Positions 1,476 through 35,506 of a DNA stretch of 64,000 nucleotides are shown one piece after another. A model generated the notes under the pieces. That model ran no database searches. It was not told where the DNA came from and was given only the letters and a program-made list of their open reading frames with translations. A program made the position numbers and the translations under genes. Origin of the DNA: Rhodoferax sp. (GTDB taxonomy: Bacteria; Pseudomonadota; Gammaproteobacteria; Burkholderiales; Burkholderiaceae_C); NCBI GenBank assembly GCA_031291305.1, contig JARLJH010000021.1, positions 147,287 through 211,286 of the forward strand, in the 5' to 3' direction. Position 1 is the stretch's first letter; each line of letters starts with the position of its first letter.

Positions 1476-1484
1476 GAGTCCGCC

Positions 1485-2936: not shown

Positions 2937-2956
2937 CGGGTGTCAGGTGAGCCATC

Positions 2957-5734
2957 ATGTGGGAAATTTACGCTTACCAGAACTCGGACAGCTTGTTCGG
3001 TGTCTTCAACGCCGCCGCCGCCATCAATGCCTCCAACGACTACCTCTCTGCCGTGGCCGCCGTTGCGTTCTGCGGCTTCGTCTCCGCCCTGATTGCCTAT
3101 GCCTTCGCGCCGGAGAAGCTGCAGGGCTGGAAGTGGCTGGGCTCGGTCGTGCTGGTGTTCTCCGTGCTGATCGTGCCCAAGGTGACGGTGGGCATCGTGG
3201 ACAAGACCGGGGGCTCGGCGGTCAAGGTCGTCGATAACGTGCCTTTCGGTGTCGCGGTGCTGGGAAGCCTCACCAGTACCATCGGCCACACCTTGACCGG
3301 TCTTTTTGAAACCGCCTTCCAGGTGATCCCGGGCGCTGGTGCCCTCCCGGTGGAGTTGAGTTACCAGCAGAACGGCTTGATGTTCGGCAACCGGCTGATC
3401 CGCGAAACCGGCAATGTGGTGTTCCCCGATCCGGGCTTTCGGACCGACCTGATCAACTTCATCCACAACTGCACCACCTATGACCTGGTCGATGGCACCT
3501 TAGACCCGGCAACTTTCTCCAGTTCCGGCGATGTCTGGCCGTTGATGGCCACACCCAATCCGGCGCGTTTCAGCACGCTGACGGGGGCTGGCGGCATCAG
3601 CATTGATACCTGCCCGAATGTCTACCTGAACCTCAATGCTCGCCTGCCCGCGCAGATTAAACGGATTCAGGGGCGTCTCGCCTTCCAGCTCAACCCGACG
3701 CTGCCAGGGGCTGCGGCAGCAGCAGCCATCGCAGGGCAAGTGCAGCAGGCCTATCTCAAGAACAACATCGCCAACGCAGCGTCCACAGCGGCCGACATCA
3801 TCCGGCAGAACGCCATGCTCAATGCCATTGAGGACACGGACAAGATCGTCGGCCAAAAAGTCAACGACCCGGCCGCCATGGTACTGGCGGTCGGACGGGC
3901 CCAAGCCGTCGCCCAGCAGAATGCGTCCTGGCTCAACTACGGCAAGGTGGCGGAACAGGCACTGCCGGTGTTCCGCAATGTGGTCGAGGCCGTGACCTAC
4001 GCCCTGTTCCCCTTGTTCGTGTTGTTGCTCCTGCTCACCAGCGGCCGCGAGACCATGATGGCATTCAAGGGCTACGCCGCCATCCTGATCTGGATTCAGC
4101 TCTGGCCGCCGTTGTATGCCATCCTGAACTACATGGCGTCGATCTACGCGGCCTACGACCTGGCCGCCGCCGCCGACCTCGGCACCGGCACCAAGGCGCT
4201 GGCCCTGCAAACGGCATCGACCGTCTATTCGCGCACGATATCGGGGGAAGCGGTGGTGGGCTATCTGGCGATCAGCGTTCCCTTCATCGCCTGGGCGGCG
4301 CTCAAACGCATGGAGAACATGGGCACGGCTTTGGTGGGTGGGCTGTCCGGGCTGCAGGGCACCTTGTCCGGTGCCACCAGCAGTGCGGTCGCTGGCAACG
4401 TCAGCCTGGGCAATGTGGGTATGGACCAGCTGCAACTGGCACCCAACCGCACCTCGGCGTTCATGGGGAGCATGCAGAACGACCTGAGCGGGAATACTTT
4501 GACGTCCAATGCCCTGACCGGGCGCACCGCGGCCAGCCTGCTGCGCAACCAGGGCTTTGCCTCACGAGTCGTGTCTATGCGGGTGTCAGAACAGGACGTC
4601 ACCGAGGCCAGCCGCCAGGCGGAGACGGCGCGCAGCGAGGCCGTCTCCGCCGGACAGCAACGCTCGGCCACACTCACGGAAGCGTTCACGCGCGGTGTAG
4701 CCAAGCTGCGCTCAACGCGCAACAGCACGGGCACGACGTCCAGCAGCTTCGAACAGCTGGGCGAAAGCCTCAATAACCTCGATCAGATCGCCCAGAGCGT
4801 GTCGCAGCGTACCGGACTGTCGCAGTCCCAGGTCGCCCACATCGCCTTCGGTGCCAGCGGCTCTCTGGGCCTCTCGACCCCCGCCGCCAGCGCGAAAATC
4901 CAAGGTAACGCCGGAAAGAACTACCAGTCGGGCATCCTGAGCGACGAGCAGAAAGTGCTCAACACCATGACCACCGAACAACTGGCAGCCTTCAAGCAGT
5001 TTGGCGACCGGGTCTCGCGGGACAGCAGCGTGATGACCGTCATCGCGTCCGACAGCAAGGAAGGTCGCGACATGTCGTCCCGCCTGGCCACGGCAACCTC
5101 ACAGGCGGAACGCGCTGAAGCAGTTTTCGCGCAGCGCCAGGGTCTGGTCGAACGCATGAGTGCAGCGCACGAGCGTGGCGAGACCCTGTCCATCGACATC
5201 GCCCAGGACCCGCACAACCTCGACATGTTCATGCGCTACGCCGAGCAGTATGGCGGCACCAGTGCTGCGGCGCACACCATGATGGAATCGGAATTGGCGC
5301 GGCAGGGGTTGCGACCGACACGGGTGTTTTCTGACGGGACAGCCCTGCCCACCTCGTTTGGAAGCATCCGAGAGGCCTACGAACTGGAACGTGCAGAGGG
5401 GGCATTTGCGCCGAACTTAGACGTCGACCGAAAGGCGAACGACACGCGGGTGACCGGACAACGGACCAGCGCCACGCCGGGCAAGACTCCCAACGCCGGG
5501 CCATCGCCGGTCAGGGCGGAGATTCAGCGCGCTCACGAACACCTTCAAGGCCAGGCGACAGGAGCCATTGGCAATTTCGATGCGAAGGCCGAAATCGTCA
5601 AAACGTCCGATGGCACACTCAAGTCCGGGAAATCGCTGTTCGTGCAGACCGAAAAGCAATTAGCTGGCGATGCCGACGTGACGCTGGACGCCACCAAGGA
5701 TGCGGTCAAGAGCCTGCTCAAGCGCGACAAGTAA
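2957..5734 (+). CDS. traG: TraG-like mating-pair stabilization and conjugation inner-membrane protein
   Basis: This is a 925-residue F-type TraG (TraG_N family), not the VirD4 coupling protein. The N-terminal half carries hydrophobic segments, for example around residues 35-55, 65-80, 340-360, 370-395 and 425-440. The C-terminal half is hydrophilic, rich in Ala, Ser, Gln and Arg, and predicted helical, which fits the periplasmic or cytoplasmic tail involved in pilus assembly, mating-pair stabilization and entry exclusion. The opening MWEIYAYQNSDSLFGVFNA matches the family start. It is the last gene of the transfer operon here and converges on the minus-strand gene at 5735 with no spacer. Confidence 0.88.
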   Translation: MWEIYAYQNSDSLFGVFNAAAAINASNDYLSAVAAVAFCGFVSALIAYAFAPEKLQGWKWLGSVVLVFSVLIVPKVTVGIVDKTGGSAVKVVDNVPFGVAVLGSLTSTIGHTLTGLFETAFQVIPGAGALPVELSYQQNGLMFGNRLIRETGNVVFPDPGFRTDLINFIHNCTTYDLVDGTLDPATFSSSGDVWPLMATPNPARFSTLTGAGGISIDTCPNVYLNLNARLPAQIKRIQGRLAFQLNPTLPGAAAAAAIAGQVQQAYLKNNIANAASTAADIIRQNAMLNAIEDTDKIVGQKVNDPAAMVLAVGRAQAVAQQNASWLNYGKVAEQALPVFRNVVEAVTYALFPLFVLLLLLTSGRETMMAFKGYAAILIWIQLWPPLYAILNYMASIYAAYDLAAAADLGTGTKALALQTASTVYSRTISGEAVVGYLAISVPFIAWAALKRMENMGTALVGGLSGLQGTLSGATSSAVAGNVSLGNVGMDQLQLAPNRTSAFMGSMQNDLSGNTLTSNALTGRTAASLLRNQGFASRVVSMRVSEQDVTEASRQAETARSEAVSAGQQRSATLTEAFTRGVAKLRSTRNSTGTTSSSFEQLGESLNNLDQIAQSVSQRTGLSQSQVAHIAFGASGSLGLSTPAASAKIQGNAGKNYQSGILSDEQKVLNTMTTEQLAAFKQFGDRVSRDSSVMTVIASDSKEGRDMSSRLATATSQAERAEAVFAQRQGLVERMSAAHERGETLSIDIAQDPHNLDMFMRYAEQYGGTSAAAHTMMESELARQGLRPTRVFSDGTALPTSFGSIREAYELERAEGAFAPNLDVDRKANDTRVTGQRTSATPGKTPNAGPSPVRAEIQRAHEHLQGQATGAIGNFDAKAEIVKTSDGTLKSGKSLFVQTEKQLAGDADVTLDATKDAVKSLLKRDK

Positions 5735-6291: not shown

Positions 6292-6748
6292 TCACAAACG
6301 CCGCCGGATCGCCACAACGAACTCAGCAACGAGACCCTCATCAGTCAACGCAGGAAACTCTTTGAGAAGCTTGTTCGACACCTGGCCACAGTTCGCGCGC
6401 ACCGACCAGATGATGCAGTCGATGTCGCCGTCCGACCCTTCGACGACCTGCTTGGCGCGCTGGTGGGCCAGACGAAGGCTGCACAGATTGCCACTGTCGA
6501 TCCCAGTGGGCGAAGGGGCGAGAGTCCGGCGACGATACCTTGCGCAGCACGTGGTGCATGGCTGCTCCTGCGGTCCGACTTGGATCATCCCATCGAACCG
6601 GAATACGCCACCCTGCGTCACGAACACCACCAACCCTTCCGACATCTGGGCCAACCACAGCTACGGGTGCACCGTTGACCGTGCCGAGCCCGAAGAGTTT
6701 GTGATCAATACGGTCACCTTCCTCAAACTGGAAATTTAAACTACTCAT
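6292..6748 (-). pseudogene. hypothetical element-borne protein, disrupted by one frameshift
   Basis: The start (MSSLNFQFEEGDRIDHK) follows a good AGGAG site and reads a compact N-terminal domain (LFGLGTVNGAPVAVVGPD, WRIPVRWDDPSR, DSRPFAHWDRQWQS). Near 6475-6490 the coherent reading moves to another frame, which continues LRLAHQRAKQVVEGSDGD and ends RRRL at 6292. Without a shift, the first frame runs into Arg-, Gly- and Pro-rich nonsense-like sequence. Joined, the two frames would give about 150 residues with a plausible helical C-terminus. A single-base indel in the genome, or an assembly error, explains this. I recall intact relatives on conjugative elements but know no function. It lies 51 nt downstream of the nuclease gene at 6800, on the same strand. 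Confidence 0.6.
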
Positions 6749-6799: not shown

Positions 6800-8014
6800 T
6801 CAAACCATAAAGGCTGGTTGGGAGATCACGACCGGACTCACCACGTCTCGAATTTCACTAAGTCCCGCAACGAGCAGATCGTACTGTTCGGTCCGCCGCC
6901 CTTGATCCCATATGATCGGCAGCACTTTGCGGTACGGACTGCCACGTTTCAGGTAAAGACTAACGTCTTCACCAATCTGCGAGATCAGATCCTGCGGCGT
7001 GCTCTTCTCCCTCCAATACTTGACCTCTATCACTAGGTGCAGCGACGGGATCACCAGGTCAGCCCGCGGCTTCTTCTGTCCCACCGAGGCAAGCCACTCT
7101 TCGTCGCGCAGGTCTGGCAACACCGGTGCGAGTACCGCGCACAGAAGATTCTGAAAATGGTACTCGTTTTCGACAGCCCACTTCTGCGCTGTCGAATTCG
7201 GCGTCTTCTTCTGATCGTCCCAGGTCCATCGGCGCAATCCAGATGGGAGTCGGCGAAGGAGGAAGCCCACATCTTCCAGACTCGGTGCGCGCAAATCTAT
7301 CTGAGACGCACCCTGCGCGAGAAAGCGAAAGGCCGCCAGATCCATGGCCGCCTGCTCAGGATCGTCGTAGACAACCAACTTCATGCGGCTGAGCAACTGC
7401 GACGCAAAGTCGTTATCGGTCGCTAGCGAAGATCTCGCCAATCCACGTGCAACATAGATAGCCGCACACGCGCTAGCGGGCGCCAGTTGTAACTCATCGT
7501 GCAATCCCAACTCAGATCGCATCTTGATCATGCACAACAGCTCTTGGCGCCATCCAACTTCCGCAGACAGAAGCGGTTGGAGCTTGGCGAGAAGCAATGC
7601 AAACCACGTTCCAAACTTTTGCCAGCGCTCGTCATCATCAATCGTCACCAAACCGACAAGAACGCCGGTGTGTGCCAGCGGTTGCATCAGGCTGGCCATG
7701 GCCGTCTGCGAACCGCCGCTGCGCCCCGTCAGCCAATCCACGCCCTGCGCAAAAGAGTCTCGACATGCATCGATCAACATTGGATCGATGCTCAGTAAGA
7801 ATCCCAAGGTAGCAACAGCATGAATTGACCGGCCGCCGCCCGCGATCTCCCCGCATAGCTCCCGCGCCACTGGCGCGCTTTGTTCAGAGGGTAACTCCTC
7901 GGCGAGTACCCAATGATAGAAAGCTACCGCGAGCGGACCTGCCCCCGTCAAGGTCTGGGCCTGGCCCGCTACGGCCTTCAGGGCCTCGTGCAAGATCGGA
8001 TTGTCAGTGGTCAC
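6800..8014 (-). CDS. Argonaute-associated PD-(D/E)XK nuclease (putative abortive-infection effector)
   Basis: The product is about 404 residues. The N-terminal two thirds are helical and of unknown fold. The C-terminal domain shows a PD-(D/E)XK nuclease core: an acidic helix (VENEYHF), an Asp in RADLVIPSLH at about 319, and IEVKYW with Glu330 and Lys332. GTG at 8014 is the likely start, because GAGG lies 8 nt upstream and GTGA overlaps the argonaute stop; GTG 8023 would sit on top of that site. Long-B prokaryotic Argonautes with a dead PIWI domain are known to pair with such nucleases, which degrade DNA when the Argonaute finds its target and so abort infection. That role is inferred here from pairing and domain type. 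Confidence 0.78.
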   Translation of the reverse strand: MTTDNPILHEALKAVAGQAQTLTGAGPLAVAFYHWVLAEELPSEQSAPVARELCGEIAGGGRSIHAVATLGFLLSIDPMLIDACRDSFAQGVDWLTGRSGGSQTAMASLMQPLAHTGVLVGLVTIDDDERWQKFGTWFALLLAKLQPLLSAEVGWRQELLCMIKMRSELGLHDELQLAPASACAAIYVARGLARSSLATDNDFASQLLSRMKLVVYDDPEQAAMDLAAFRFLAQGASQIDLRAPSLEDVGFLLRRLPSGLRRWTWDDQKKTPNSTAQKWAVENEYHFQNLLCAVLAPVLPDLRDEEWLASVGQKKPRADLVIPSLHLVIEVKYWREKSTPQDLISQIGEDVSLYLKRGSPYRKVLPIIWDQGRRTEQYDLLVAGLSEIRDVVSPVVISQPAFMV

Positions 8015-10266
8015 AGAAACCACCTCGTTGTTCCGATCTTGCCAAGCATCACGCTAGGACTCCATCGACTACCCAGGCGATCCAGTCGACCTAAGAGGCC
8101 CGCGACGAGGTCGGAGTAGTAGATGGTGACGGGCATCGCTGCCGGCAAGAAGCTGCGCCAAGAATGATTCGAAAACCAGTAGACTTGCTTCGTGAGATAG
8201 ATGATGTCCGTGAACGTCGAATCACGATGCAGAGTCAACAGCAATGGCTTGGGCAAACCGTCCGTCGATCGCTTGAGTTGCTGAGGCCCGGTTAGGGTCA
8301 ACAAAGTCTCATTGTCGCCAACCTCAGCGTAGAGGCCCCGTATCGGTGTTTTCTCTCCCCTTCCCTTTGTTCCGACAGAATCGTCGTCGAACAGGAGGTA
8401 GGGATGGTCTTGCTTGACATGCAGGAACGCGAACTGCAGATCGAACTCCGAGAATTCTTTGAGTGCAGCCTTGACAGACTCGATCTCTGTGTTGCGCATA
8501 GGTTTGAATGCGTGCACGATCACCCGAACAGAATCGCCCTTGATCCAGTTCATTTCGCTGCGCACGCGCTGGAGCGTTGCCTGCAACGAATCGGTCAGCG
8601 CCTCACCGTACTTCGCCATCGGCACGGCATTCGACAGGTTGGAGAGCAAATAGCCGCCGTCACCACGGAAGACGCTGGTGATACCGACGATCCTCTCCTT
8701 CTTTAAGAACCGTGACTCGCCGATTGCAGCGCTACCAAGGCCGATGACCACCTCGTGCGCGATCCCCTTATCTGACTTGATCAACCACGGAATTCCGCCG
8801 AGCTTGGCATAGACGGCGAGCGCGAGATTGCTCAATGTATAAGCCAGGTTGCTGGGTGCCATCGCGAAGGTCTCGAAGGCGATGAACTGCGTGGGAATCT
8901 GGTTGGAGAGAAACGCTGCTTTGGCTACCAAATAGGGGTTGCGTTGCGGTGGTAACTGTCGCGAATCTCTCTCGGTCTGCACCAGCGCCAGATGCCACGG
9001 CGTCCCTTCGGCGCCCATACGCACTGCTTTGGAAGCAGCCGCGTGGTACGCGTCTGCTGTGAAGCTGTCAGCCTCCACAAACGTCAGCGTGATGTCCTGC
9101 AGGCCGTAGATTCCGAGAAATCCTCTGCCGAACGGCAGCGACTTGCCGTCGACCGTCAACCCGTCCCGAAACTTCCTGAGGAATAGTTCGAATTGCCCGC
9201 GTCGCGCCCGATCACAGACCACACAGACGTTCGGCCGCGTCGGCGTGAACACATGCCTGCTGTAAGGACCGAACTTTGTCAGTCCTACCGCCGCGCGCGT
9301 CTCTGACTTGAGCGTGCCGGCATCGAACACGTAGGTCGGTGTGCTGGCCTCCGCGAAACGCGGAAACGTCGCGCTATCTTTCTCGTTGATCATGCTATCG
9401 ATACTGACACTCAGCCCTTCTTGCAACTCGATGGCACCTATGCCTCGCACCCAGTCCGAAATCCGGGCGATGTGCTCCATCCTGACACGCCCCCTGCTGT
9501 TCTCGAACACGATCTCATCGATCCTGCCCTGCGTCGTTCCGGAGGCGTTTCGCGTGAAGTGCTGCAATAAGTGCCGAATGTTCTCGGACGAGGCCTCCAG
9601 ATACAACTCGTCCAGGGGCAGAAACTCCTCAACATTCATGAACCGCTCAGACAGTCGTGCCTTGCCGTCTGCGATGCCTCCAACGCGCCCGACAAGCCTG
9701 CGCTGGGGCAGCATGCGCGCATCTTCCACCGGTGTCTCGCGCTCGACCACCAAGCCATCTAGGCGAACGCCCTTTTCGCTCAACACCGCTAGGCTGGTCG
9801 CGCATGTTTTCTGGATTTCGATATCCCACAGCAGTCCAAGCAAGTCGGAACCTTGTAGCTTCAGGGATCGAATGGAGATCAAGACGCGAGACTGCAGGTG
9901 AACATGCTTATCAGCGTCCAGAAAACCCGTCGGCAATGTGCGACCCACCGTCGTGATCGGGTTGTAGCGGGCCACTGGCCGCCTGTTTGCACTCAGCAAT
10001 GACACCAAACGCTGTTCTAGCAACGGCCGGATCAGCGAGGCGTGCTCGACCGCTGAGACATACTTTTCCTTGCCGATGTGCGTCGCGTCGGGCGCAAGTG
10101 GTAACGCCACAATCTGATCTGCCCGACGGGTCACCGCAAACTGCGTTCGGTACTGGTCACGAAGCTCACGCAATTGCTGCGAATCCTTGAATGGCAGGAT
10201 CTGCAGTTGGATGGCGTCGCCATGAACGAGCAACGGTGTGAAATTGAGCTGCAGTTGTCGTCCCAT
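8011..10266 (-). CDS. ago: long prokaryotic Argonaute with inactive PIWI domain
   Basis: The product is 751 residues, the size of a full-length (N-PAZ-MID-PIWI) Argonaute, not a short one. The MID pocket for the guide 5' end is visible as Y445, K449, Q460 and K488, with spacing 4, 11 and 28, which as I recall matches Rhodobacter sphaeroides Argonaute. The PIWI domain begins near residue 505. The position of the first catalytic Asp is glycine (VVIGLGSA, G511), and the later site reads VHAFKP instead of carrying an acidic residue, so slicing is not expected. It should bind a guide, recognise invading nucleic acid and signal to its partner nuclease. AGGAGG sits just before the ATG and overlaps the upstream TAG. 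Family certainty is high; guide type is unknown. Confidence 0.88.
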   Translation of the reverse strand: MGRQLQLNFTPLLVHGDAIQLQILPFKDSQQLRELRDQYRTQFAVTRRADQIVALPLAPDATHIGKEKYVSAVEHASLIRPLLEQRLVSLLSANRRPVARYNPITTVGRTLPTGFLDADKHVHLQSRVLISIRSLKLQGSDLLGLLWDIEIQKTCATSLAVLSEKGVRLDGLVVERETPVEDARMLPQRRLVGRVGGIADGKARLSERFMNVEEFLPLDELYLEASSENIRHLLQHFTRNASGTTQGRIDEIVFENSRGRVRMEHIARISDWVRGIGAIELQEGLSVSIDSMINEKDSATFPRFAEASTPTYVFDAGTLKSETRAAVGLTKFGPYSRHVFTPTRPNVCVVCDRARRGQFELFLRKFRDGLTVDGKSLPFGRGFLGIYGLQDITLTFVEADSFTADAYHAAASKAVRMGAEGTPWHLALVQTERDSRQLPPQRNPYLVAKAAFLSNQIPTQFIAFETFAMAPSNLAYTLSNLALAVYAKLGGIPWLIKSDKGIAHEVVIGLGSAAIGESRFLKKERIVGITSVFRGDGGYLLSNLSNAVPMAKYGEALTDSLQATLQRVRSEMNWIKGDSVRVIVHAFKPMRNTEIESVKAALKEFSEFDLQFAFLHVKQDHPYLLFDDDSVGTKGRGEKTPIRGLYAEVGDNETLLTLTGPQQLKRSTDGLPKPLLLTLHRDSTFTDIIYLTKQVYWFSNHSWRSFLPAAMPVTIYYSDLVAGLLGRLDRLGSRWSPSVMLGKIGTTRWFL

Positions 10267-10274
10267 ACCCCCTC

Positions 10275-11180
10275 CTATTTTTTCTTCAGCATCAGTTGGA
10301 TCATCGCGAACAGACGATGGAAGAGGTAGTCGATATGGTCCACATCGATCACCGGCACTTGGCTCACTTCGGAATGGCGGATCAAGTGGCTATTGCCAAT
10401 CGAGTTCAACTCCTGCGCCTCCGCTTCCAGCCTGGCTCGCAATAGCGGCTCCGTTGCGGTGGCATCTAGGATGATCGTGATCGACCTCTTCTTGTCACGA
10501 GGGTCCGCGAGCGATTTGAGTCGCTCCCATACATCCCACAGCCGCTCCAGCGCTTCTCGTCGAACAAGGGGATTGCGGTCAGAAAACTTCGCTCGACACT
10601 CATCCAGCATGATGTCAAGCATGCGGTCCCCGGTATTGAAGGCTGTTTGCCTCAGTTCATCACCTAATACCAGCGGCAACACTCGAACAATGCGCCCAGT
10701 CGAGCGCATCTCGAAGGCAACGCCATTGCGCGAGAAAATGCGGTTGACGGTCGCTCGAAGCTCGTCCCGCCCCGCTTGCTGATCAAAATTCAGATGGTGG
10801 TGGCTGAAGAAGTCATGGTATTTGCCAGGGATTGGCTTCGCCACGGCATCATGGACGAATTCTATGAAGTCCAAGACCAACAACGTTTCCGGCGCAAGCG
10901 GCTCTCGTTGAGAGAAAAGCCCCTCCTCCACTTCACGAGTGGTTTCAAGCGGCCACGCCAGACCGGGCATCTCCGCAACCACGCCCGCAGCCAGGGAATC
11001 GGAATCGCAACCGCAAACAGCCTGCCCATCTGGGCAACGCTCAGGGAACCGCAGTCCGAAGGCACCATTGTTGATCAGCCCCTGCACTAAGGCGACCACA
11101 CCAGCCCAAACCGTTGGTGAGATCACCTGCTCGGTTCGTGCTCTTGGACCGTTCTCCCGGTCGCTGAAGTAGTCCGGCAT
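10275..11180 (-). CDS. uncharacterized protein between Gabija and Argonaute (Cys motif, possible HEPN-like C-terminus)
   Basis: The product is 301 residues with no signal peptide or membrane segment. Recognisable blocks are YFSDRENGPRARTEQV at the N-terminus, a cysteine cluster FPERCPDGQAVCGCD near residues 45-60 that could bind metal, a histidine run HDFFSHHHLNFD near 122-133, and a C-terminal helix pair with IGNSHLIRHSE and DYLFHRLFAMIQLML. That tail resembles C-terminal regions of AbiJ or HEPN-type defence proteins, but the resemblance is weak. I recall the family as widespread and uncharacterized. It is coupled to the micro-ORF upstream (TGATG at 11182-11178) and lies 8 nt before argonaute, so it is probably a functional partner. 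No function is assigned. Confidence 0.7.
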   Translation of the reverse strand: MPDYFSDRENGPRARTEQVISPTVWAGVVALVQGLINNGAFGLRFPERCPDGQAVCGCDSDSLAAGVVAEMPGLAWPLETTREVEEGLFSQREPLAPETLLVLDFIEFVHDAVAKPIPGKYHDFFSHHHLNFDQQAGRDELRATVNRIFSRNGVAFEMRSTGRIVRVLPLVLGDELRQTAFNTGDRMLDIMLDECRAKFSDRNPLVRREALERLWDVWERLKSLADPRDKKRSITIILDATATEPLLRARLEAEAQELNSIGNSHLIRHSEVSQVPVIDVDHIDYLFHRLFAMIQLMLKKK

Positions 11181-11284
11181 CAGCGCACCGCCTTGTGCTC
11201 GATTGACGCGGCTATTGCCGGGTCGTTGATGAACCGTTCGCCATCGGTTAGTAGCTCATGGACGGATTCTGGTAGCCCGCTCAC
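11180..11284 (-). CDS. 34-residue micro-ORF coupled to both neighbours
   Basis: GTG at 11284-11282 begins directly after the TAG of the helicase gene, and the frame ends with TGA at 11182-11180, which overlaps the next ATG as TGATG. A GGGAGG ribosome site lies about 9-10 nt upstream of the GTG, inside the end of gajB. The peptide starts VSGLPESVHELLTDGERF and is acidic then basic, probably one or two short helices, without a membrane segment. It fills the only space (104 nt) that would otherwise be a gap in the defence block. It may be a small structural or regulatory peptide, or only a translational bridge that carries ribosomes into the next gene. Confidence 0.5.
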   Translation of the reverse strand: MSGLPESVHELLTDGERFINDPAIAASIEHKAVR

Positions 11285-13048
11285 CTAGCCCACCTCCCGA
11301 ATGGACGTGATCAGCGGCGACTCGTCTTCGTCGTAGGTCAGATGAATCTGTGTCTTAGCTCGCGTAACCCCGACATAGAAAAGTCGAGCTGCTTCTTCCA
11401 GTTGCTCGTCAGTCTTGTCGTAGCCGCTTGGGAACACGCCGTTCTCCAGACCGACCATGACTACCGCCTGGAACTCCAGTCCTTTCGAACTGTGCAGTGT
11501 CATCAGATTGACCTGATCCGGACTCTTGCCCTGATTCCCAAATATCTCGACCGTGAATGTCTGCAAGGGCCCGCCTGCTGCCGCGACCGCTATCAGCTCA
11601 TCTAGGTTGTCTTTCTCGTCGGCGAGACTTGGCTCTTGCTGGAACAAGTCATCCAGCACGTCGCGACGCAATGCTGAGAGCCATCGATGCAAGGGCTGCG
11701 CACCGTCCCGTAGTGAGAACAAGGCCGCAATCAACTGCTTGCGTGCGGTCAGCAGCTCGGATTCACGCGTGACGGAGCGGCGTAACCGTCGCCATGCTTT
11801 GAGCAGCTGTGAAAGAGTCACCGTCCCTGTCTGCCAACCGCCGGCACACCATCGCGCTGCATCTGTGAGCCACTCTGTCAGGCGGGTGCGCTTGATCGGC
11901 GAGCCGTTGTCGAGCCGGAAATACCGCAAACCGAGGGCATCCGCCGCCTGCGCAATCGGCGTCCCCTCGTTGAGCGTGCGGTACAGCAACGCAATATCCC
12001 CCGGGGCCCATGACGGATTTTCCACGAGCAGCGCTGGCACCAGTGTCCCAAGCGCGTAGTCCGCCTGCTCGCGGATGTTGCGCTCCAGGCGGTGGATGAG
12101 GACTTCGCCGGTCCGCCCATCATGAGAATGAAATTCAGCTGGTTCCGGCAATAGCGCCATGGAAGCAGCGATGATGCGGTCCGCGCAGCGGTAGTTCAGC
12201 TTGAGTCTGATGGATTCCATCTGCGGAAAATGGGCCAATGCTCGCAACAAGCTTGGCTTAGCACCGGTGAATCCATAAATGGACTGGTCCGGATCCCCCA
12301 CGGCAACTACCCTGGTGCCCGCCCGAAGCAATGCCAACACAATGCGATGCAGGGGCAGACCGAGATCCTGATATTCGTCGATCACGATCACCGGATACTT
12401 GGCTTGAATGGCACGTCTGACCCATTCGTGCTTCTCGACAAGTTGCAGGCCGGCCAGGACCAGTCCATCGAAATCGATCAGGCCGCTTTTTAGAAGCAAT
12501 GCTTCGTAGGCCTCAACCACCGCTGTTTCGCGGGCGTGCCACGCGTGCCATTCGTCACTCCCCTTGTCCGGGATAGTGCGCCGCAGCTTGTCGCAGGCCA
12601 TGCGAAACCAATTCGGCGCATTTCCGCCCAACTGCTCGCGATAGGCATCGGCAAAGAGCTTTCGCACCTGTGCCGGCGAAGCCACGACGAGCGGATCCGG
12701 CACGTCGAGACCTGCCAGTGCGGCGTAGGGCAACACCAGCTCAGTCAGGCAAAAAGAGTGCACAGTCGAGAGCAAGAGACGATCGCCGTCATCCGCACCG
12801 AGCTCGCTCAGCCTTGATCGCAGTTCGCCAACGCAGGCATTGCTATAGGTGATGCACGCCAGCCGCCGTGGACGGTGCACATCTTCAGCGAGCAGCCGGG
12901 CGATCTTGACGGTGATCGTCTTAGTCTTGCCGCTGCCGGGCCCAGCCAGGATGACGCAGTTCCCTGTCGATTGATACGCACGCCATTGATCCTCGTTCCC
13001 ACGCAAATCTTCCGCGGCTTTGAGATATGGGAACGCAGTGGAGATCAT
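11285..13048 (-). CDS. gajB: GajB-like UvrD/PcrA-family helicase
   Basis: The product is 587 residues and shows the superfamily 1A motifs in order: Walker A GPGSGKTKT at about 36-44, motif Ia CITYSNACVGELRSRL, motif II VIVIDEYQDLG, motif III VGDPDQSIYGFTGA, motif IV LNYRC, motif V VNLMTLHSSKGLEF and motif VI FYVGVTRAKTQ. UvrD-like helicases act on DNA ends. Next to an OLD nuclease, such a protein is the GajB subunit of Gabija, thought to sense or process DNA and activate GajA. Its ATG overlaps the gajA stop (ATGA at 13048-13045). It is longer than the founding Bacillus GajB (about 500 residues). UvrD-OLD pairs outside Gabija proper exist, hence the reserve. Confidence 0.85.
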   Translation of the reverse strand: MISTAFPYLKAAEDLRGNEDQWRAYQSTGNCVILAGPGSGKTKTITVKIARLLAEDVHRPRRLACITYSNACVGELRSRLSELGADDGDRLLLSTVHSFCLTELVLPYAALAGLDVPDPLVVASPAQVRKLFADAYREQLGGNAPNWFRMACDKLRRTIPDKGSDEWHAWHARETAVVEAYEALLLKSGLIDFDGLVLAGLQLVEKHEWVRRAIQAKYPVIVIDEYQDLGLPLHRIVLALLRAGTRVVAVGDPDQSIYGFTGAKPSLLRALAHFPQMESIRLKLNYRCADRIIAASMALLPEPAEFHSHDGRTGEVLIHRLERNIREQADYALGTLVPALLVENPSWAPGDIALLYRTLNEGTPIAQAADALGLRYFRLDNGSPIKRTRLTEWLTDAARWCAGGWQTGTVTLSQLLKAWRRLRRSVTRESELLTARKQLIAALFSLRDGAQPLHRWLSALRRDVLDDLFQQEPSLADEKDNLDELIAVAAAGGPLQTFTVEIFGNQGKSPDQVNLMTLHSSKGLEFQAVVMVGLENGVFPSGYDKTDEQLEEAARLFYVGVTRAKTQIHLTYDEDESPLITSIREVG

Positions 13049-14892
13049 CCCAGCTTCGCCCTCAGATAGTCCAGCGCAGATTCGATGTACTCAGGACATA
13101 CATCGACATCCTCCTCTATCAGTACCGACGCCAGCCGTTGCGCCATACGACCCTTGCCAATGGAGTCGATGTCCTTGAGAAATTGCGAGGGATCCAGCGA
13201 CTCAGGATCGGTCGCGAGGCTCGCGAAGCGCGCGTGCATCTTCATGTTGGTGGTGAGGTCCTTGATGGCTGTCAGGAAATGGTCCTCTGCCCCCGTTCGG
13301 AAAACATCGATCTCAAAAGTGAATTCGTTCAAGAATACGCCATGTTTGGGAGCAAGCTCCATCACCTGCGCAAAGTCGCATCCCTTCCAAACGTCGTCAT
13401 CCAAAATGTGCTGCATGATCTGATTGACCACCCGGTTCTCGCCATAGCTGTCCGTAACGCCTGCCTCATCAGGATCAGCGTCTTCCTGGCTCGTCACTTC
13501 ATTCTTCGGGTCGTAATCCGTCAGCACCACAAACGGGATATCGAGCCCCTTTGGCCCCAGCAATTGGACATAAGGCGCGAAGTGGGTGCCGGCAATGGAG
13601 CAGACTGTGATGCCCATCGCATCAAAATCTAGACTCTTGTCATACAGCTTGGCCAGCGTCGGCAGCAGAAACTTCTCCGCATCGCCTTCCACCAGAATGA
13701 CGCCCTTCGAGAAAAACAGTTCACCGCGCGTGACGTCGATATAGCGTTCCAGGTCCTCACGGTCGCTAGTATCGAGTTTGATGCCTTTGAGAGAGCGCCC
13801 AACGGTATGCCCTTCGCCAGCAATCTGGCGCAGGACAACCACATTGGCGAGCGGTGCCACGCTGGCCACGTTCGGCGAATGCGTTGTGAGCAGAATGCTG
13901 CGCGGCCCGGGTCCGGCTTGCTCGTCATCACGCGTTTGCAGATAGTTCCGATAGATGAGCCGCTGTAGATGAGGATGCAGGTGGGCCTCGGGTTCCTCTA
14001 TCGCCAGAAACGTGTGTTGACGCTCCCCCTCGTCCACCAGGTATTGATGTTCCAGATGCTTCAGTGCGAGGTAAAGCACATTGGCGGATCCGAGACTGGC
14101 CTCTGCCACGCCGCGCTTGCCGCCGTCGATCATCATTTGCAGTGCGCGTATCAAGCGGTCCGGCTCCGTGGGCGCGAAACCTAGTGCCGTTTCGACGGCA
14201 TGCTTGTCTCCCACCATGGCGGTAAGCTGATTGTTGACCTGATCCACAACCCCTGCGAGTTCAGGTAACGCAGCAATTTTTGAGGTGGTTTTATGAATCT
14301 CAGTGGCAATCGTGCTGAGTGCTTTCGCATCTATCGTCTTCGCGGCACGATCCAGCAAGGGGCGCAGTGGAGAACGCGCCCAGCGCGCGAGGTCCGATTC
14401 GGCATCGCGCAACGCAGGAAATAAATCTAGCGGCATCCACCGCCTTAGTTCGTAGCCAACCGTGTTGTCGGGGCGATCTCCGCCAAACAGAATGAATTCG
14501 TAGTCTGCCTCGCTGCGCGGCGCACCCTCAAGCCCTGGCACGGGCTGGTAGCGATACGTGATTCGCGCCACCATCGGGGTTGGCCGCACGAGGTGATCCG
14601 CCAACACCGCCAGCAAATTCTCATCATCTTCGAAACCTCGAAACTCGACCGACACCTCAATCACGTCCTCGGCCTTCAACGGCCGCACCAGCCCATCCCA
14701 GAAATCATCCAGGCGAAGTTTGCGCATCGAGTCTGGAAGTGCTGGATCAAGGATCAGTTGCAGTGCAAACAGCAGATTGGTTTTTCCGACTTTGTTTTCG
14801 CCGAGCACGACGGCATGTTCGCCCAGGCGAACATCCAACAACTTGAAGTTGCGGAAATTCTTGATAACGATCCGACTCAGTCGCATGGGCAT
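13045..14892 (-). CDS. gajA: GajA-like OLD-family ATPase-TOPRIM endonuclease
   Basis: The product is 615 residues, or 613 if the second ATG (14886), which gives the family-typical start MRLSRIVIKNFRNF, is used; GGGAA lies upstream. The ABC-type ATPase part has Walker A GENKVGKT at 31-38, a signature-like EASLGSAN near 264-271 and Walker B FLAIEEPEAHLHP near 295-307. The C-terminal TOPRIM nuclease shows VILVEGDAEK (Glu402) and VVLTDYDP (Asp459, Asp461). GajA is a nucleotide-inhibited DNA nuclease that with GajB forms the Gabija anti-phage complex. The gene lies 23 nt after the Mrr-like gene and overlaps gajB by 4 nt. Confidence 0.88.
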   Translation of the reverse strand: MPMRLSRIVIKNFRNFKLLDVRLGEHAVVLGENKVGKTNLLFALQLILDPALPDSMRKLRLDDFWDGLVRPLKAEDVIEVSVEFRGFEDDENLLAVLADHLVRPTPMVARITYRYQPVPGLEGAPRSEADYEFILFGGDRPDNTVGYELRRWMPLDLFPALRDAESDLARWARSPLRPLLDRAAKTIDAKALSTIATEIHKTTSKIAALPELAGVVDQVNNQLTAMVGDKHAVETALGFAPTEPDRLIRALQMMIDGGKRGVAEASLGSANVLYLALKHLEHQYLVDEGERQHTFLAIEEPEAHLHPHLQRLIYRNYLQTRDDEQAGPGPRSILLTTHSPNVASVAPLANVVVLRQIAGEGHTVGRSLKGIKLDTSDREDLERYIDVTRGELFFSKGVILVEGDAEKFLLPTLAKLYDKSLDFDAMGITVCSIAGTHFAPYVQLLGPKGLDIPFVVLTDYDPKNEVTSQEDADPDEAGVTDSYGENRVVNQIMQHILDDDVWKGCDFAQVMELAPKHGVFLNEFTFEIDVFRTGAEDHFLTAIKDLTTNMKMHARFASLATDPESLDPSQFLKDIDSIGKGRMAQRLASVLIEEDVDVCPEYIESALDYLRAKLG

Positions 14893-14915
14893 TTCCCGTT
14901 CTTTTGGCTTTAGGT

Positions 14916-15842
14916 TTACTTCTCCGCACCGGAGATGGGGTGCACGTAAATGAGGCCCTTGGTTTGCGCCGCCTTCACCTTACGGTCGATCAGGTCGCGA
15001 AAATTCAAGTGCCCTTCAAGCACGAGAATCAAATCTTCACCGTCAACGAAGAGCGTCTGAATCTCCTTACCCATGATCAGGCTCCGGACCACTTCGGCGC
15101 TAAAACCGTTGATCGAGACAAACAGGCCGCGTCCGTAGAGCTTGCCGGCCACCTTGCCAGCAAATTGGTACACCGGCTCATTGCTTGCCGATTTTTCCTG
15201 CCATTTAGCCTCTATCAGATAGTGTTCTCCGTCGAACTTCACCGCACCATCGATCTGCTCGCCGTGGACGCGAAATGCTTCTGTCGTCTCCAGGCAAGAG
15301 AGCCTGGCGAGCTCTGCCAAGATGCGTTCCAATGCATAGCCGCGCTGTTGTCTCGTTGTTTTGTTGGCCAGTAGGTCTAGGTATTCGGCACGCAGGTCTT
15401 CCAGGGTAATAGTCGGCTGCTGGCGCTCCGCCTCGTGGGTCGCTCGGCGCTCTCGATCCGACTTGATCCTAGCATCACGGATTTCCTGCAATTGCTTCAG
15501 GTGCTCGAGATTACCGATTGCTACCGCGCGATCCAGCTTGCGCAGCTTGTCAAAGTAATATGGGTCAAAGTGTGACCAAGCCAACAGTGACTGCAGCATG
15601 GCGCGAAACGGTCCAAGCCCGTTGTCAGGACGCACGTTCAGCGTCTCGAAGAGCACGTCGATTATCTCGTGTCGCTTAAGGCCTGTCTCACCATCGATCT
15701 GCAGGCCACCCACTTCGGACTTCGTGCATCCGTGCTTCTCAAAGAAGCCAACGATGTCTTTGCGTGGCCAGAACAAAGACAAGATACAGTCTTTCATGCA
15801 GCCCTTGATGTCGGCAGGAAAAAACGTTTCGTTCCCTTTCAT
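14916..15842 (-). CDS. Mrr-like restriction endonuclease
   Basis: The product is 308 residues from ATG 15842, which overlaps the upstream stop as TGATG; AGGCGGA provides the ribosome site. A TTG one codon earlier is less likely. The C-terminal half carries a PD-(D/E)XK core: RGYALERILAELAR, then EQIDGAVKFDGEHYLIEAKWQ in essence, with the Asp in QIDGAV and the Glu and Lys in IEAKW. A following FSINGF-like strand (LFVSINGFS) is typical of the Mrr_cat family. The N-terminal 130 residues are helical with a charged coil near residues 118-140. Mrr-type enzymes cut modified or foreign DNA; whether this one works alone or with a neighbour is not visible. Confidence 0.72.
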   Translation of the reverse strand: MKGNETFFPADIKGCMKDCILSLFWPRKDIVGFFEKHGCTKSEVGGLQIDGETGLKRHEIIDVLFETLNVRPDNGLGPFRAMLQSLLAWSHFDPYYFDKLRKLDRAVAIGNLEHLKQLQEIRDARIKSDRERRATHEAERQQPTITLEDLRAEYLDLLANKTTRQQRGYALERILAELARLSCLETTEAFRVHGEQIDGAVKFDGEHYLIEAKWQEKSASNEPVYQFAGKVAGKLYGRGLFVSINGFSAEVVRSLIMGKEIQTLFVDGEDLILVLEGHLNFRDLIDRKVKAAQTKGLIYVHPISGAEK

Positions 15843-16738
15843 CAACTGATCCGCCTGAGGAGCCGATCGATAACATCGCTCGCCTGGCGCTGGCGCAACG
15901 CCCTCGCCTCGCGCTGTTCGGCCTCATTGCTTTCGCCAAGTTCGAACTTGGCCACAGACACCGGGCCGTCCTTGCGATAGCCCTCCGTCTTGTCGTCTTG
16001 CACGAAACGACTGCGCAGGATCGCCAACGAAGCCCGAATCACGGCACCGTGCTTGCCATCGCGTTCCTTGCGGAAAGCTTCAGTGACGGCGTCGATGCCT
16101 TCGGGCGCATGTTCGATGCAATAGATCAAGTCGTGCGCGTCCTTGCGTTCGAAGCGTTGGTCGAATGCGAACGCTTTTAGGCAGGTGAAGCTGACCAGAT
16201 TCGCGTGCTTGACCTTCTCGGTTGCCACGCCGTTGCCGCCCAGCAATTCGGCTTGGATCTCGGTAACCTGGTATAGATCGAAGACGATGGACGAATGCGG
16301 AATGTTCAGCGCCGAGATCGTTCCCTCGGTCGGCAACGGCTGCACCTTGCCGCCGGCGATGTGCGGCGCGTCGGCCAACAGCTCGAGCACCATCAGCGCA
16401 CCGTGTTCGGTGCGAGCTTGCCAACGCCAGGAGAGTTTTTTCCCGGCCTCGTTTTCGGCACGCTCAAAGCCCATTTTCTTGAGGTTATCCTCCAGCGTGT
16501 GATATGCCTCGGTGTCTGCTAGGATTTGCAGGTCGATTACGATGTCGACATCGAGGGTACCCGCATGCGCTGGGACCACCGGTGGTCGAGCGGCGACCAG
16601 GTACCTCGGGGTCAGGCCGCCGACCAGGTAGACCGAATCTTTCCATGGCCCCAACCCACGCAGCAGCGTCACGAGGACGCGCTCGCAGTCGAGCGTGTAC
16701 TGGTCGCTGTAGCCGTCAAGCGTTGCGGGTTTGGCCAT
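15842..16738 (-). CDS. AbiEii-like nucleotidyltransferase (putative toxin)
   Basis: The product is 298 residues from ATG 16738, chosen because it overlaps the upstream stop as TGATG. An upstream in-frame start at 16840 would run through the previous gene. The nucleotidyltransferase signature is clear: VYLVGGLTPRYLV supplies the GG motif and LDVDIVIDL supplies the paired aspartates. This is the fold of AbiEii and related toxins that transfer nucleotides to tRNA or other targets. With the AbiEi-like gene just upstream it forms a type IV-style toxin-antitoxin pair. The C-terminal part is helical and Arg-rich. The target is unknown; the toxin role is inferred from family and pairing. Confidence 0.75.
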   Translation of the reverse strand: MAKPATLDGYSDQYTLDCERVLVTLLRGLGPWKDSVYLVGGLTPRYLVAARPPVVPAHAGTLDVDIVIDLQILADTEAYHTLEDNLKKMGFERAENEAGKKLSWRWQARTEHGALMVLELLADAPHIAGGKVQPLPTEGTISALNIPHSSIVFDLYQVTEIQAELLGGNGVATEKVKHANLVSFTCLKAFAFDQRFERKDAHDLIYCIEHAPEGIDAVTEAFRKERDGKHGAVIRASLAILRSRFVQDDKTEGYRKDGPVSVAKFELGESNEAEQREARALRQRQASDVIDRLLRRIS

Positions 16739-17817
16739 CAGAAACCGATCTTTTCTTTGCGCAAGTGCTCGGCCATTTCTTTGGAGCGCCCTTCGCCGCG
16801 CACCAGGTCGAGATAGACCTGAATAGGACTCGCCAGCCAAACACCGCCGACTTGCTGGCGGAACAACAACTCTCCCGCCGACTTCGTCTCGATGATCGCG
16901 AGATTCGCCCCTTCGTTGACGACGCGCGCATCCAACTCAGCCACCGCCGTGTCAGCACCGGCGCTGGACAGCAGCCGAGTCCGCACCTGCGAGATACCGG
17001 ACAGGAATGGACCGTAGCGCTGTGCAGCGGCTTCGTAGCTCACCGCGTAATCAACCTGATTCGCGTCGAAGACTTGGCCAAGCCGCTCGATCAGGGCCTC
17101 TGACTTCACGCTGGGAACGAAATACCGACGCAGCGTTGGTGCGCGCTGTGTAGCAAGGTGTTTGGCCCAGGCGTCGAGCAACGCGCCCGGTTCGCGCAGA
17201 TGGCGCTCCTTGCTCGGCCCCTGCCCGCGGGACACCAACCAGTCGAACCGATCCAACTCACCCAGTACATCCGAGGCAGTGGACGGTGCCACCTGCGCCT
17301 GCTCGGCCACCTCGGTGACGCCAAACCATTCCGTGTAGCTGTCCAGAAGAGCGTGCAGCACTTGGGCGCGCCGTCCGGAAAACAGCGACCGCACCGACCT
17401 TTCCAAGGTCTTCGGAGGCGGCTTGTCGATGTAGATGTAGGCGCCCGAGGCCGGCAGAAACAGGCTTCCGCCGCTGTCGTAGTAGCCGATGCGCTCGGCC
17501 CTGAGCAGTTCCTTCGCACCAGGCGAGAGGGATTCGGCAATGAGCAGGTGCTGTGCGTCGGCATAGCGGCCATGCTGCAGCAACTTGAACTGCCACAATA
17601 CCTGGCGCACATCTCGGGGGAAGACGGTTTTCTTCGCCTCGACCAGTAAGACAATCGATTTGCCGGCAACGCTTAGGTCGATCTTGGCGTCGCGCCGGTC
17701 AGTTGCCGGCGTGGCAGATTCCAGCACGTCCAATTCGGCGTGTACGTCCGGCAGTTCCCGGAGCGACTCCAGGAACTGTTCGATCAGAGCGTGTTCGACG
17801 AGGGGCGACTCGATCAT
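16738..17817 (-). CDS. AbiEi-like regulator/antitoxin with nuclease-like N-terminus and winged helix
   Basis: The product is about 359 residues from ATG 17817, with AGGAAAT 10 nt upstream. The in-frame ATG at 17853 lies upstream of the predicted transcription start, so I rejected it. The N-terminal domain reads KIDLSVAGKSIVLLVEAKK, a PD-(D/E)XK-like Asp...Glu-x-Lys arrangement. A winged helix follows (VTEVAEQAQVAPSTASDVL, near residues 160-185), then an AbiEi-type C-terminal region ending with VWLASPIQVYLDL. AbiEi proteins neutralise the nucleotidyltransferase partner and repress their own promoter by binding inverted repeats. A perfect inverted repeat just upstream (17878-17903) fits that. 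First gene of the defence block. Confidence 0.72.
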   Translation of the reverse strand: MIESPLVEHALIEQFLESLRELPDVHAELDVLESATPATDRRDAKIDLSVAGKSIVLLVEAKKTVFPRDVRQVLWQFKLLQHGRYADAQHLLIAESLSPGAKELLRAERIGYYDSGGSLFLPASGAYIYIDKPPPKTLERSVRSLFSGRRAQVLHALLDSYTEWFGVTEVAEQAQVAPSTASDVLGELDRFDWLVSRGQGPSKERHLREPGALLDAWAKHLATQRAPTLRRYFVPSVKSEALIERLGQVFDANQVDYAVSYEAAAQRYGPFLSGISQVRTRLLSSAGADTAVAELDARVVNEGANLAIIETKSAGELLFRQQVGGVWLASPIQVYLDLVRGEGRSKEMAEHLRKEKIGF

Positions 17818-17843
17818 GACAGCAGTTATTTCCTGAACAGCGA

Positions 17844-17872
17844 ATAATGGCATTATACCGAAAATTTGTCAA
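17844..17872 (-). promoter_or_regulatory. predicted sigma70 promoter of the defence operon
   Basis: On the minus strand TTGACA (17872-17867) is followed after exactly 17 nt by CATTAT (17849-17844). A better-looking TATAAT lies at 17857-17852 but has no good -35 at 17 nt. Either choice starts the RNA near 17837-17845, about 20 nt before the AbiEi-like ATG at 17817. No other convincing promoter was seen inside the block down to 6800. Confidence 0.5.
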
Positions 17873-17877
17873 AGATG

Positions 17878-17903
17878 CGATATTCGCTGGTCAGCGAATA
17901 TCG
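17878..17903. promoter_or_regulatory. perfect inverted repeat, likely operator for the AbiEi-like protein
   Basis: Two 12-bp arms, CGATATTCGCTG and CAGCGAATATCG, are separated by 2 bp. The repeat lies just upstream of the predicted -35. A third half copy, CAGCGAATA, sits at 17838-17846 over the predicted -10 and transcription start. A protein that binds all three could block RNA polymerase, which fits AbiEi-type autorepression. Confidence 0.6.
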
Positions 17904-29037: not shown

Positions 29038-29053
29038 GGCAAGTCTCCGTGCT

Positions 29054-30100: not shown

Positions 30101-30126
30101 TCCAAATCCCCCTTAGAAGTCAGATC

Positions 30127-30148
30127 TTGACAATTCAGAAATTGTCAA
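30127..30148. promoter_or_regulatory. inverted repeat upstream of mtrA
   Basis: TTGACAATT and AATTGTCAA form perfect 9-bp arms with a 4-base spacer, 27 bases before the mtrA start. Each arm also holds a TTGACA -35-like hexamer on its own strand. It may be an operator or promoter part. Its long spacing does not fit an FNR site. Confidence 0.4.
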
Positions 30149-30165
30149 ATAGCCCTTTGGCTCAG

Positions 30166-30197
30166 AAAAAAGGGAGGGTCCAAAAATGAACCCTCCC
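30166..30197 (-). terminator. rho-independent terminator after the mtrC-like gene
   Basis: Read on the minus strand, GGGAGGGT pairs perfectly with ACCCTCCC over a 10-base loop and is followed by six T residues. It starts 22 bases after the stop of the decaheme lipoprotein gene and would end its transcript before mtrA. Confidence 0.8.
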
Positions 30198-30219
30198 GTT
30201 AGAGACATCGCAGTGGCGA

Positions 30220-32739: not shown

Positions 32740-32868
32740 TTTGTCCATCCACTTCGTTGTTACTTGCAAATAACAGGGCTTCAACATTGTCAAAACCACT
32801 AGGGTGAGTTGTATTTATTGACTATCTGCGGCACCCGTTCACCCAAACGAACACCGCCTAAACGAGGT

Positions 32869-33216: not shown

Positions 33217-33275
33217 GAACGCTTTCCTTCGACTAAAAAATGATGAGCTTTCCAAGTTTTATTGGATAACTTAGA

Positions 33276-33322: not shown

Positions 33323-33412
33323 TCGCATTGATTTATCTCAATCAAGTGTCATCTCGCACAAATTCATGTTGCTACTTGACTGGCGCTGTGATCCAGCAAC
33401 TATTTGAGGGAC

Positions 33413-34045: not shown

Positions 34046-34056
34046 GGTGTCACCTG

Positions 34057-35436: not shown

Positions 35437-35506
35437 AAGATGTGACTCCACTGATTGCCTTGACATCGCTCTTTAAAACGGCATATCCCAATGACAAGCA
35501 GATGTT

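What the first reader, a model, noticed from the sequence alone, without database searches (positions are those of the whole stretch)
6800..17872. One 11-kb operon joins an AbiE-like pair, an Mrr-like nuclease, Gabija and an Argonaute-nuclease system
Eight clear genes and one micro-ORF run in one direction with TGATG, TGATG, 23 nt, ATGA, zero gap, TGATG, 8 nt and GTGA junctions. Only one convincing promoter is seen, at the far end. Known defence islands usually hold separate units. Here the coupling suggests co-expression and perhaps joint function. The individual families are known; their linked operon may not be described.
Basis: partly seen in the sequence, partly recalled or inferred. Interest (0 to 1): 0.85.

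Follow-up and report, generated by a model that had tools for sequence, protein, structure and literature searches.

The report
Defence operon led by AbiE-type module
Eight bacterial anti-phage and anti-plasmid genes are stacked behind one promoter that carries a conserved control site, and the same regulator pair and control site head other defence gene sets in other bacteria, which suggests that it is a portable front end for swappable defences.

Summary
In detail: eight co-directional genes with the stated junctions. The micro-ORF is not supported as a gene. Families: AbiEi-like regulator, nucleotidyltransferase, Mrr-like nuclease, Gabija (GajA, GajB), AbiJ_NTD4 protein, long-B Argonaute, PD-(D/E)XK nuclease. 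The last two are a BPAN system.

The whole block recurs in order in one MAG locus at 84-96% protein identity, under purifying selection; a near-identical second locus shows seven genes before its contig ends. A third relative keeps Gabija-[scar of gene 6]-BPAN.

The larger finding lies at the front. The AbiEi-like/nucleotidyltransferase pair, with a two-palindrome operator at 54-55 nt spacing (26 of 27 loci), heads other co-directional defence genes elsewhere: Mrr+Qat+Gabija, Mrr+SIR2-HerA+Qat, Mrr+Gabija (twice), helicase/MmeI genes, a TrlF-like ATPase. In 19 of 28 loci it has no recognised defence cargo. Best reading: a portable AbiE-type, self-repressing front end driving exchangeable defence cassettes. 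Co-transcription and repression are inferred. Modules also occur apart, so a joint biochemical machine is unlikely. My literature searches found no description of this arrangement. New variant of a known kind.

The parts
17883..17898 (-). distal operator palindrome (core TTCGCTGACCAGCGAA, inside a 12+12 nt perfect inverted repeat 17878-17903)
17829..17844 (-). proximal operator palindrome, 54 nt from the distal one
17844..17880 (-). promoter between the palindromes: TTGACA-17-CATTAT (17872-17844), or the conserved -10 TATAAT (17857-17852)
   Evidence: for the first; read by eye for the conserved -10
16738..17817 (-). g1, AbiEi-like: N-terminal segment with an EAK motif, central winged helix, C-terminal AbiEi_2-like domain (longest ORF starts at 17853)
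15842..16738 (-). g2, AbiEii-like nucleotidyltransferase (GG...DxD pattern)
   Evidence: own Pfam match absent, 3 of 10 family members match AbiEii
14916..15842 (-). g3, Mrr_cat restriction endonuclease
   Evidence: (Mrr_cat 2.2e-07)
13045..14892 (-). g4, GajA (ABC ATPase plus OLD TOPRIM)
   Evidence: PDLC00070 3.3e-228
11285..13048 (-). g5, GajB (UvrD-like helicase)
   Evidence: PDLC00117 3.9e-216
11180..11284 (-). micro-ORF: spacer, not supported as a gene
10275..11180 (-). g6, AbiJ_NTD4 protein, PDC-S32 candidate defence protein
8011..10266 (-). g7, long-B prokaryotic Argonaute, related to EcAgo over its length
6800..8014 (-). g8, PD-(D/E)XK nuclease, bAgaN (Aga_Helical-REase / DpnII-MboI)
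6478..6748 (-). truncated remnant of a small gene that follows bAgaN in L002-L005; homology ends here (edge of the block)

Best explanation
The block is one composite defence operon, lying beside conjugation genes, and transcribed from a single promoter in front of g1. g1 (AbiEi-like) most likely binds the two palindromes 54 nt apart that flank that promoter and represses it, so that it sets the level of g2 and of everything downstream. g2 is its AbiEii-like nucleotidyltransferase partner, probably a growth-arresting toxin. The pair, with or without Mrr (g3), is a portable front end; the genes behind it are exchangeable cassettes. Here they are Gabija, an AbiJ_NTD4 protein and BPAN (by analogy with EcBPAN, an inactive Argonaute that recognises invading plasmid DNA and activates a DNA-degrading nuclease). 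Each cassette probably works by its own mechanism; what they share is expression and inheritance. Shown here: gene order, families, operator conservation, purifying selection, cargo turnover. Inferred: co-transcription, repression by g1, toxicity of g2, activity of each cassette.
For: Same order of eight genes in L010 (g1-g7 in the near-identical L006) at 84-96% amino-acid identity, with dN/dS 0.07-0.18 for all eight genes, window versus L010. L008 retains GajA-GajB-[17-codon scar joining the two ends of gene 6]-Argonaute-bAgaN. Operator pair with at most 4 mismatches over 28 specified bases and spacing 54 (22 loci) or 55 (4 loci) in 26 of 27 head loci; one further case seen by eye in L046. 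Controls: no site pair with 5 or fewer mismatches in 259,835 bases of loci held without the pair, and 7 as the minimum in 3000 simulated 520-nt regions. In the 64-kb window one pair has 4 or fewer mismatches, in front of g1; allowing 5 adds only a pairing of the same distal palindrome with a poor site. All 28 loci with g2 also hold g1, adjacent and upstream by their coordinates. 9 of 28 are followed by a co-directional run of defence-type genes within 150 nt (families): window, L006, L010, L013, L015, L016, L030, L031, L042. The 7 loci with a co-directional Mrr-type third gene continue into Gabija, Qat or SIR2-HerA plus Qat. Close g3 relatives: 3 of 399 genomes, all in this head. g7 and g8 match the EcAgo and EcbAgaN chains of PDB entry 23wq at 1.1e-116 and 3.6e-41. 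In AbiE, AbiEi represses its own promoter by binding inverted repeats (PMC7319586, abstract and passages; PMC3985639, passages).
Against: No transcript data. The head pair stands without recognised defence cargo in 19 of 28 loci. Junctions behind the head are looser in other layouts, up to 129 nt. dS along the block is uneven (0.22 for g6 to 1.0 for g2) and part of g2 is closer to heads with other cargo than to L010, so the block is a mosaic, not a fixed unit. g1 and g2 are only weakly AbiE-like by profile (AbiEi_2 below cut-off in the window protein; AbiEii matched by 3 of 10 g2 family members, NTP_transf_8 by 1). More distant g3 relatives occur without the head: no g2 match in L052 (61% identical) or L053 (49%). 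Structure models of g1 and g2 were too poor to use (mean pLDDT 41 and 43). Published AbiE operators have 23-bp repeats 3 or 13 bp apart, a different layout. L006 and L010 are nearly identical, so they are one observation, not two.
Confidence: 0.62

Rival explanations
1. Ordinary defence island: independent systems accumulated in one orientation at a cargo site of a conjugative element. Each keeps its own weak promoter, and the adjacency has no regulatory meaning.
For: Conjugation genes TraF, TraH, TraG lie next to the block. Modules occur apart elsewhere. BPAN has other upstream neighbours: RmrA in L002; RmrA, Shosta-like and trypsin-like genes in L003. Two internal - strand sites have 9 of 12 promoter consensus bases.
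Against: Overlapping stop/start junctions, internal promoter-like sites at chance level, same order kept at 84-96% identity in another lineage, and an operator only at the front.
Confidence: 0.25
2. Joint machine: the modules act as one pathway, for example the Argonaute recruits Gabija, or Gabija products feed the Argonaute.
For: Conserved order Gabija-gene 6-BPAN in window and L010 (to within the Argonaute in L006), and a trace of it in L008.
Against: Gene 6 is lost in L008 and reduced to a tail in L007 while the Argonaute-nuclease pair is kept; BPAN lacks this Gabija in L002 and L003; Gabija-type pairs sit in other operons or alone in L013, L016, L048 and L049.
Confidence: 0.07
3. Addiction reading: the AbiE-like toxin pair mainly stabilises the mobile element, and defence genes ride behind it because its promoter and its linkage protect them from loss.
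For: The pair without defence cargo sits beside replication or partition genes in plasmids L019, L039, L043 and L045. S. agalactiae AbiE stabilises a plasmid in E. coli (PMC3985639, passages).
Against: Toxicity of g2 is untested; cargo carriage is seen in 9 of 28 loci only.
Confidence: 0.25

Closest known systems
BrxR (PMC9122601, abstract and section list seen) and RptR (PMC12255303, abstract and section list seen): repressors of defence islands
   Same: A regulator encoded with the defence genes represses their promoter by binding repeats, and relatives of it accompany varied defence systems (BrxR) or Type I restriction-modification (RptR). The RptR island holds a toxin-antitoxin system inside a restriction-modification locus.
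   Different: Here the regulator is AbiEi-like, is paired with a nucleotidyltransferase, and has an operator of two palindromes 54 nt apart; binding is not tested.
AbiE type IV toxin-antitoxin (PMC3985639, passages; PMC7319586, abstract and passages)
   Same: Regulator gene before nucleotidyltransferase gene, winged helix, inverted repeats over the promoter; found on mobile elements.
   Different: g1 carries an extra N-terminal segment with an EAK motif; profile similarity is weak; AbiE is described as a two-gene operon, whereas this pair leads long defence operons.
BPAN, long-B Argonaute plus nuclease (PMC10620215, abstract and passages)
   Same: Argonaute gene before nuclease gene, near full-length match to EcAgo and C-terminal match to EcbAgaN.
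   Different: In that paper the og_15 nuclease genes are said to lie usually in simple operons of 2 or 3 genes; here the pair is the tail of a larger operon.
Gabija
   Same: Adjacent gajA and gajB, best PADLOC models PDLC00070 and PDLC00117.
   Different: Led by an AbiE-like pair and Mrr, followed by an AbiJ_NTD4 gene and BPAN.
ApsAB (PMC11096173, passages)
   Same: An Argonaute-like protein paired with a nuclease, carried on genomic islands, some of which also encode AbiEi-AbiEii.
   Different: ApsA is a helicase-nuclease and ApsB a distinct Argonaute-like family; no shared operon with AbiE or Gabija is described in the passages seen.

Membership tests
Gabija | GajA: ABC-type ATPase plus OLD TOPRIM domain | tested here: met
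Gabija | GajB: UvrD-like helicase next to gajA | tested here: met
   ATGA junction
Gabija | anti-phage activity | not testable with these tools
   needs phage challenge
BPAN | long-B Argonaute related to EcAgo | tested here: met
   EcAgo chain of 23wq, 1.1e-116 over profile positions 7-751
BPAN | catalytically inactive PIWI | tested here: inconclusive
   aligned to EcAgo, GLGS against GIGS at the motif; that active Argonautes carry D there is recalled, not tested
BPAN | bAgaN PD-(D/E)XK nuclease directly downstream | tested here: met
   GTGA overlap
AbiE type IV toxin-antitoxin | AbiEi with winged helix and AbiEi C-terminal domain | tested here: inconclusive
   9 of 10 g1 family members match AbiEi_2 at E up to 1, best 1.7e-05; the window protein scores 18.7 against a cut-off of 21
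AbiE type IV toxin-antitoxin | AbiEii / DUF1814 nucleotidyltransferase | tested here: inconclusive
   3 of 10 g2 family members match AbiEii at E up to 1, best 2e-4; the window protein matches none
AbiE type IV toxin-antitoxin | inverted repeats over its own promoter | tested here: met
   layout differs from S. agalactiae AbiE
AbiE type IV toxin-antitoxin | bacteriostatic toxin neutralised by the antitoxin | not testable with these tools
   needs expression assay

The most novel reading that the evidence does not exclude
The AbiE-type pair with its two-palindrome operator is a general, transferable control cassette for defence: any system inserted behind it comes under one repressor that phage or plasmid attack relieves, and its nucleotidyltransferase toxin both punishes loss of the block and acts as last-line arrest, so that many defences are switched together and exchanged by recombination in the shared head.
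Probability: 0.3. Interest if true: 0.8.

Novelty: new variant of a known kind. Interest (0 to 1): 0.62.

Why it matters
How bacteria co-ordinate many defence systems, and how islands assemble, is largely open. A recognisable head (two genes plus an operator with 54-55 nt spacing) gives a searchable tag for co-regulated defence operons, predicts which genes are switched together, and points to unannotated genes behind such heads as candidate defences. It also makes the question of joint induction testable with one reporter.

Tried and rejected
Micro-ORF as a gene: rejected. Joint biochemical machine: judged unlikely (see rivals). Argonaute in viral contigs: 64 stretches matched a pattern, none encoded a relative; the head pair is in L046, and part of g1 at a contig end in L047. 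Argonaute in 100 related genomes: only the window's own; in 399 genomes of the order: the window's own and one distant relative. Pair followed by genes that are not recognised defence: L033 (integrase-like 1855 aa) and L035 (RTX-repeat proteins); L034 unidentified. P. aeruginosa plasmid L012 with a gene-6 relative: no g2 match at 1e-20 and no operator seen by eye in the upstream stretch printed; not this head. Structure prediction of g1 and g2 gave mean pLDDT 41 and 43, and no fold search was run. Only 17 of 82 plasmid records with a g2 match were opened, chosen by hand from the 30 best listed, so cargo counts come from a sample biased to the best matches. The first background control for the operator drew regions from all loci, heads included, and is not a clean null: 53 of 2000 regions had 3 or fewer mismatches, none 4 or 5, 3 had 6; one search leaves the heads out. 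In one search the best pair near each called start was taken, and the region was widened for L034, whose longest ORF overshoots the start.
Full report
What is there. Pfam and PADLOC name them: g1 AbiEi_2-like with a winged helix, g2 without a Pfam match of its own, g3 Mrr_cat, g4 GajA, g5 GajB, g6 AbiJ_NTD4 (PADLOC candidate PDC-S32), g7 long Argonaute (pAgo_II), g8 Aga_Helical-REase / DpnII-MboI nuclease. g7 and g8 match the EcAgo and EcbAgaN chains of PDB entry 23wq, g8 over its C-terminal 234 residues, so this pair is a BPAN system as described in PMC10620215 (abstract and passages read). The 34-codon ORF between gajB and g6 shows no coding constraint and is missing in a relative.

Is the block more than chance neighbours? 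A scan of genome contigs with g7 gave nine loci. The nuclease gene follows the Argonaute in 8 of 9; the ninth, L006, ends inside the Argonaute. The whole block, in order, is in L010 (Dechloromonas sp. UBA6271 MAG); L006 (Zoogloeaceae MAG) shows g1 to g7. Identity to the window is 84-96% for the eight genes. L006 and L010 are nearly identical to each other, so they count once. L008 (Paenalcaligenes) has gajA, gajB, Argonaute and nuclease at 76-93% identity; between gajB and the Argonaute is a 17-codon stretch that joins the first 13 and the last few codons of g6, a deletion scar. Its Argonaute is split over two ORFs as deposited. L007 keeps only the tail of g6 before the Argonaute; another type of Gabija lies 3.8 kb upstream, with DUF932, YqaJ and Gp3-like genes between. 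L002 has RmrA, and L003 has RmrA, Shosta-like genes and a trypsin-like gene upstream of BPAN, with no relative of this Gabija. L004, L005 and L009 hold too little upstream DNA to judge; the nearest upstream gene in L005 is actin-like. So BPAN is kept while its upstream partners change.

Selection. Window versus L010, dN/dS is 0.07-0.18 for the eight genes and 0.74 for the micro-ORF. dS varies from 0.22 (g6) to 1.0 (g2) along the block. In sliding windows, part of g2 is closer to heads with other cargo than to L010. The block is maintained but mosaic.

The front end. tblastn with g1, g2 and g3 on 72,556 plasmid records found 76, 82 and 1382 records; for g3 only 10 of the 1382 have a place covering 80% of it. 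I opened 17 of the 82 g2 records. Searches with a g2 profile found 6 genomes other than the window's own among 399 of the order and 1 among 398 of the phylum; all seven places were fetched. With L006, L010, L046 and the window this makes 28 loci. All 28 hold g1, adjacent to g2 by their coordinates. In 9 of 28 a co-directional run of defence-type genes starts within 150 nt of g2: window, L006, L010 (Mrr, Gabija, AbiJ_NTD4, BPAN); L013 Delftia (Mrr, a hydrolase, QatABCD, another Gabija type); L030 (Mrr, SIR2-HerA, hydrolase, QatABCD); L031 (Mrr, short GajA-GajB); L016 Rhizobium tropici (Mrr-like nuclease 28% identical to g3, GajA-GajB with the same best PADLOC models as the window); L015 Caballeronia (helicases resembling DruE and DpdE/DrmD, then MmeI); L042 Sphingomonas (TrlF-like ATPase; its PADLOC match to Ppl has a best stretch of only 119 residues). 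The other 19 have no recognised defence run; four of them (L019, L039, L043, L045) sit beside plasmid replication or partition genes. L014 carries short hypothetical genes, L033 an integrase-like gene, L034 unknown genes, and L035 a broken g2 with RTX-repeat genes beyond. The 7 loci with a co-directional Mrr-type third gene continue into Gabija, Qat or SIR2-HerA plus Qat; in L041 a nuclease gene near the pair lies on the other strand. A g3 profile search of 399 genomes found 3 genomes, all in this head, but more distant g3 relatives (L052, L053) have no g2 match.

The operator. Upstream of g1 lie two palindromes of the form TTYRCTGnnCAGYRAA. Of 27 loci tested, 26 have both with at most 4 mismatches in all and a spacing of 54 (22 loci) or 55 (4 loci); the exception, L035, has a decayed distal site and also the broken g2. 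Between them is, in many loci, a -10-like TAnAAT element, and a TTG-starting element just after the distal palindrome (read by eye). In 259,835 bases of loci held without the pair no such site pair reached 5 mismatches or fewer, and 3000 simulated regions gave 7 as the minimum. The 64-kb window has one pair with 4 or fewer mismatches, in front of g1; allowing 5 adds one pairing that re-uses the distal palindrome. The proximal palindrome overlaps the expected transcription start, which fits repression. AbiEi of S. agalactiae and Rv2827c bind inverted repeats in their own promoters, there 23-bp repeats 3 or 13 bp apart (PMC7319586, passages).

Most likely mechanism. g1 represses the shared promoter; g2 is its nucleotidyltransferase partner, likely toxic; the rest is cargo. 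[quoted passage not shown] That Gabija cuts phage DNA when nucleotides fall is recalled, not tested. Regulation and toxicity are inferences. Cargo turnover by deletion (L008, L007) and a mosaic head suggest exchange by recombination.

Comparison. BrxR and RptR are known repressors of defence islands (PMC9122601 and PMC12255303, abstracts and section lists). The AbiE-like pair in that role, with a conserved operator and Mrr-Gabija-Argonaute or Qat cargo, did not appear in searches. These cover open-access full text only; two searches listed 20 of 49 and 15 of 18 papers; I judged most by title and start of abstract and opened six papers in all. PMC3985639 (passages) notes that COG5340-DUF1814 pairs abound in defence islands, and PMC11096173 (passages) that AbiEi-AbiEii lie in some Argonaute-like islands, so the association of AbiE with defence is itself known.

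Limits. MAG contigs can be mis-assembled; the head with other cargo is also seen in named plasmid records. The plasmid gene tables are incomplete, so runs were also called from ORFs. No expression data exist here.

Noticed in passing
window 26857-42655: Two MtrAB-like porin-cytochrome sets (MtrB/PioB porins at 26857-29037 and 40325-42655, CXXCH cytochromes at 29054-30100 and 39308-40309, an MtrC/MtrF-like cytochrome at 30220-32799) flank a sensor kinase at 36078-38108: likely extracellular electron transfer genes in a lower-GC stretch.
   Followed up: partly
window 6748-6478 (-): Truncated copy of a small gene that follows bAgaN in L002, L003, L004 and L005; homology stops at about 6478, which marks the edge of the block.
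   Followed up: partly
window 597-5734 (+) and L041:1-10882: TraF, TraH and TraG lie beside the block; in a Sphingomonas plasmid the same head pair lies 5.6 kb after TraG, behind another AbiEii-type gene: the end of TraG may be a cargo site.
   Followed up: no
L054:1487-9497: In a Fibrella plasmid a methyltransferase, a small gene and a DEAD/DEAH helicase run co-directionally into a Piwi protein (43 nt) and a further gene: another restriction-type run ending in a long Argonaute.
   Followed up: no
L019:9080-9976, L043:8974-9870: In two marine alphaproteobacterial plasmids the head pair is followed by a zincin-like metallopeptidase gene on the same strand, perhaps an anti-restriction protein (recalled).
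   Followed up: no
L002:9845-10000 and L003:8912-9994: Before the Argonaute, L002 and L003 share a similar peptide end (...NKGM / ...NKRM stop, read by eye), as if L002 keeps the tail of the L003 trypsin-like gene.
   Followed up: no
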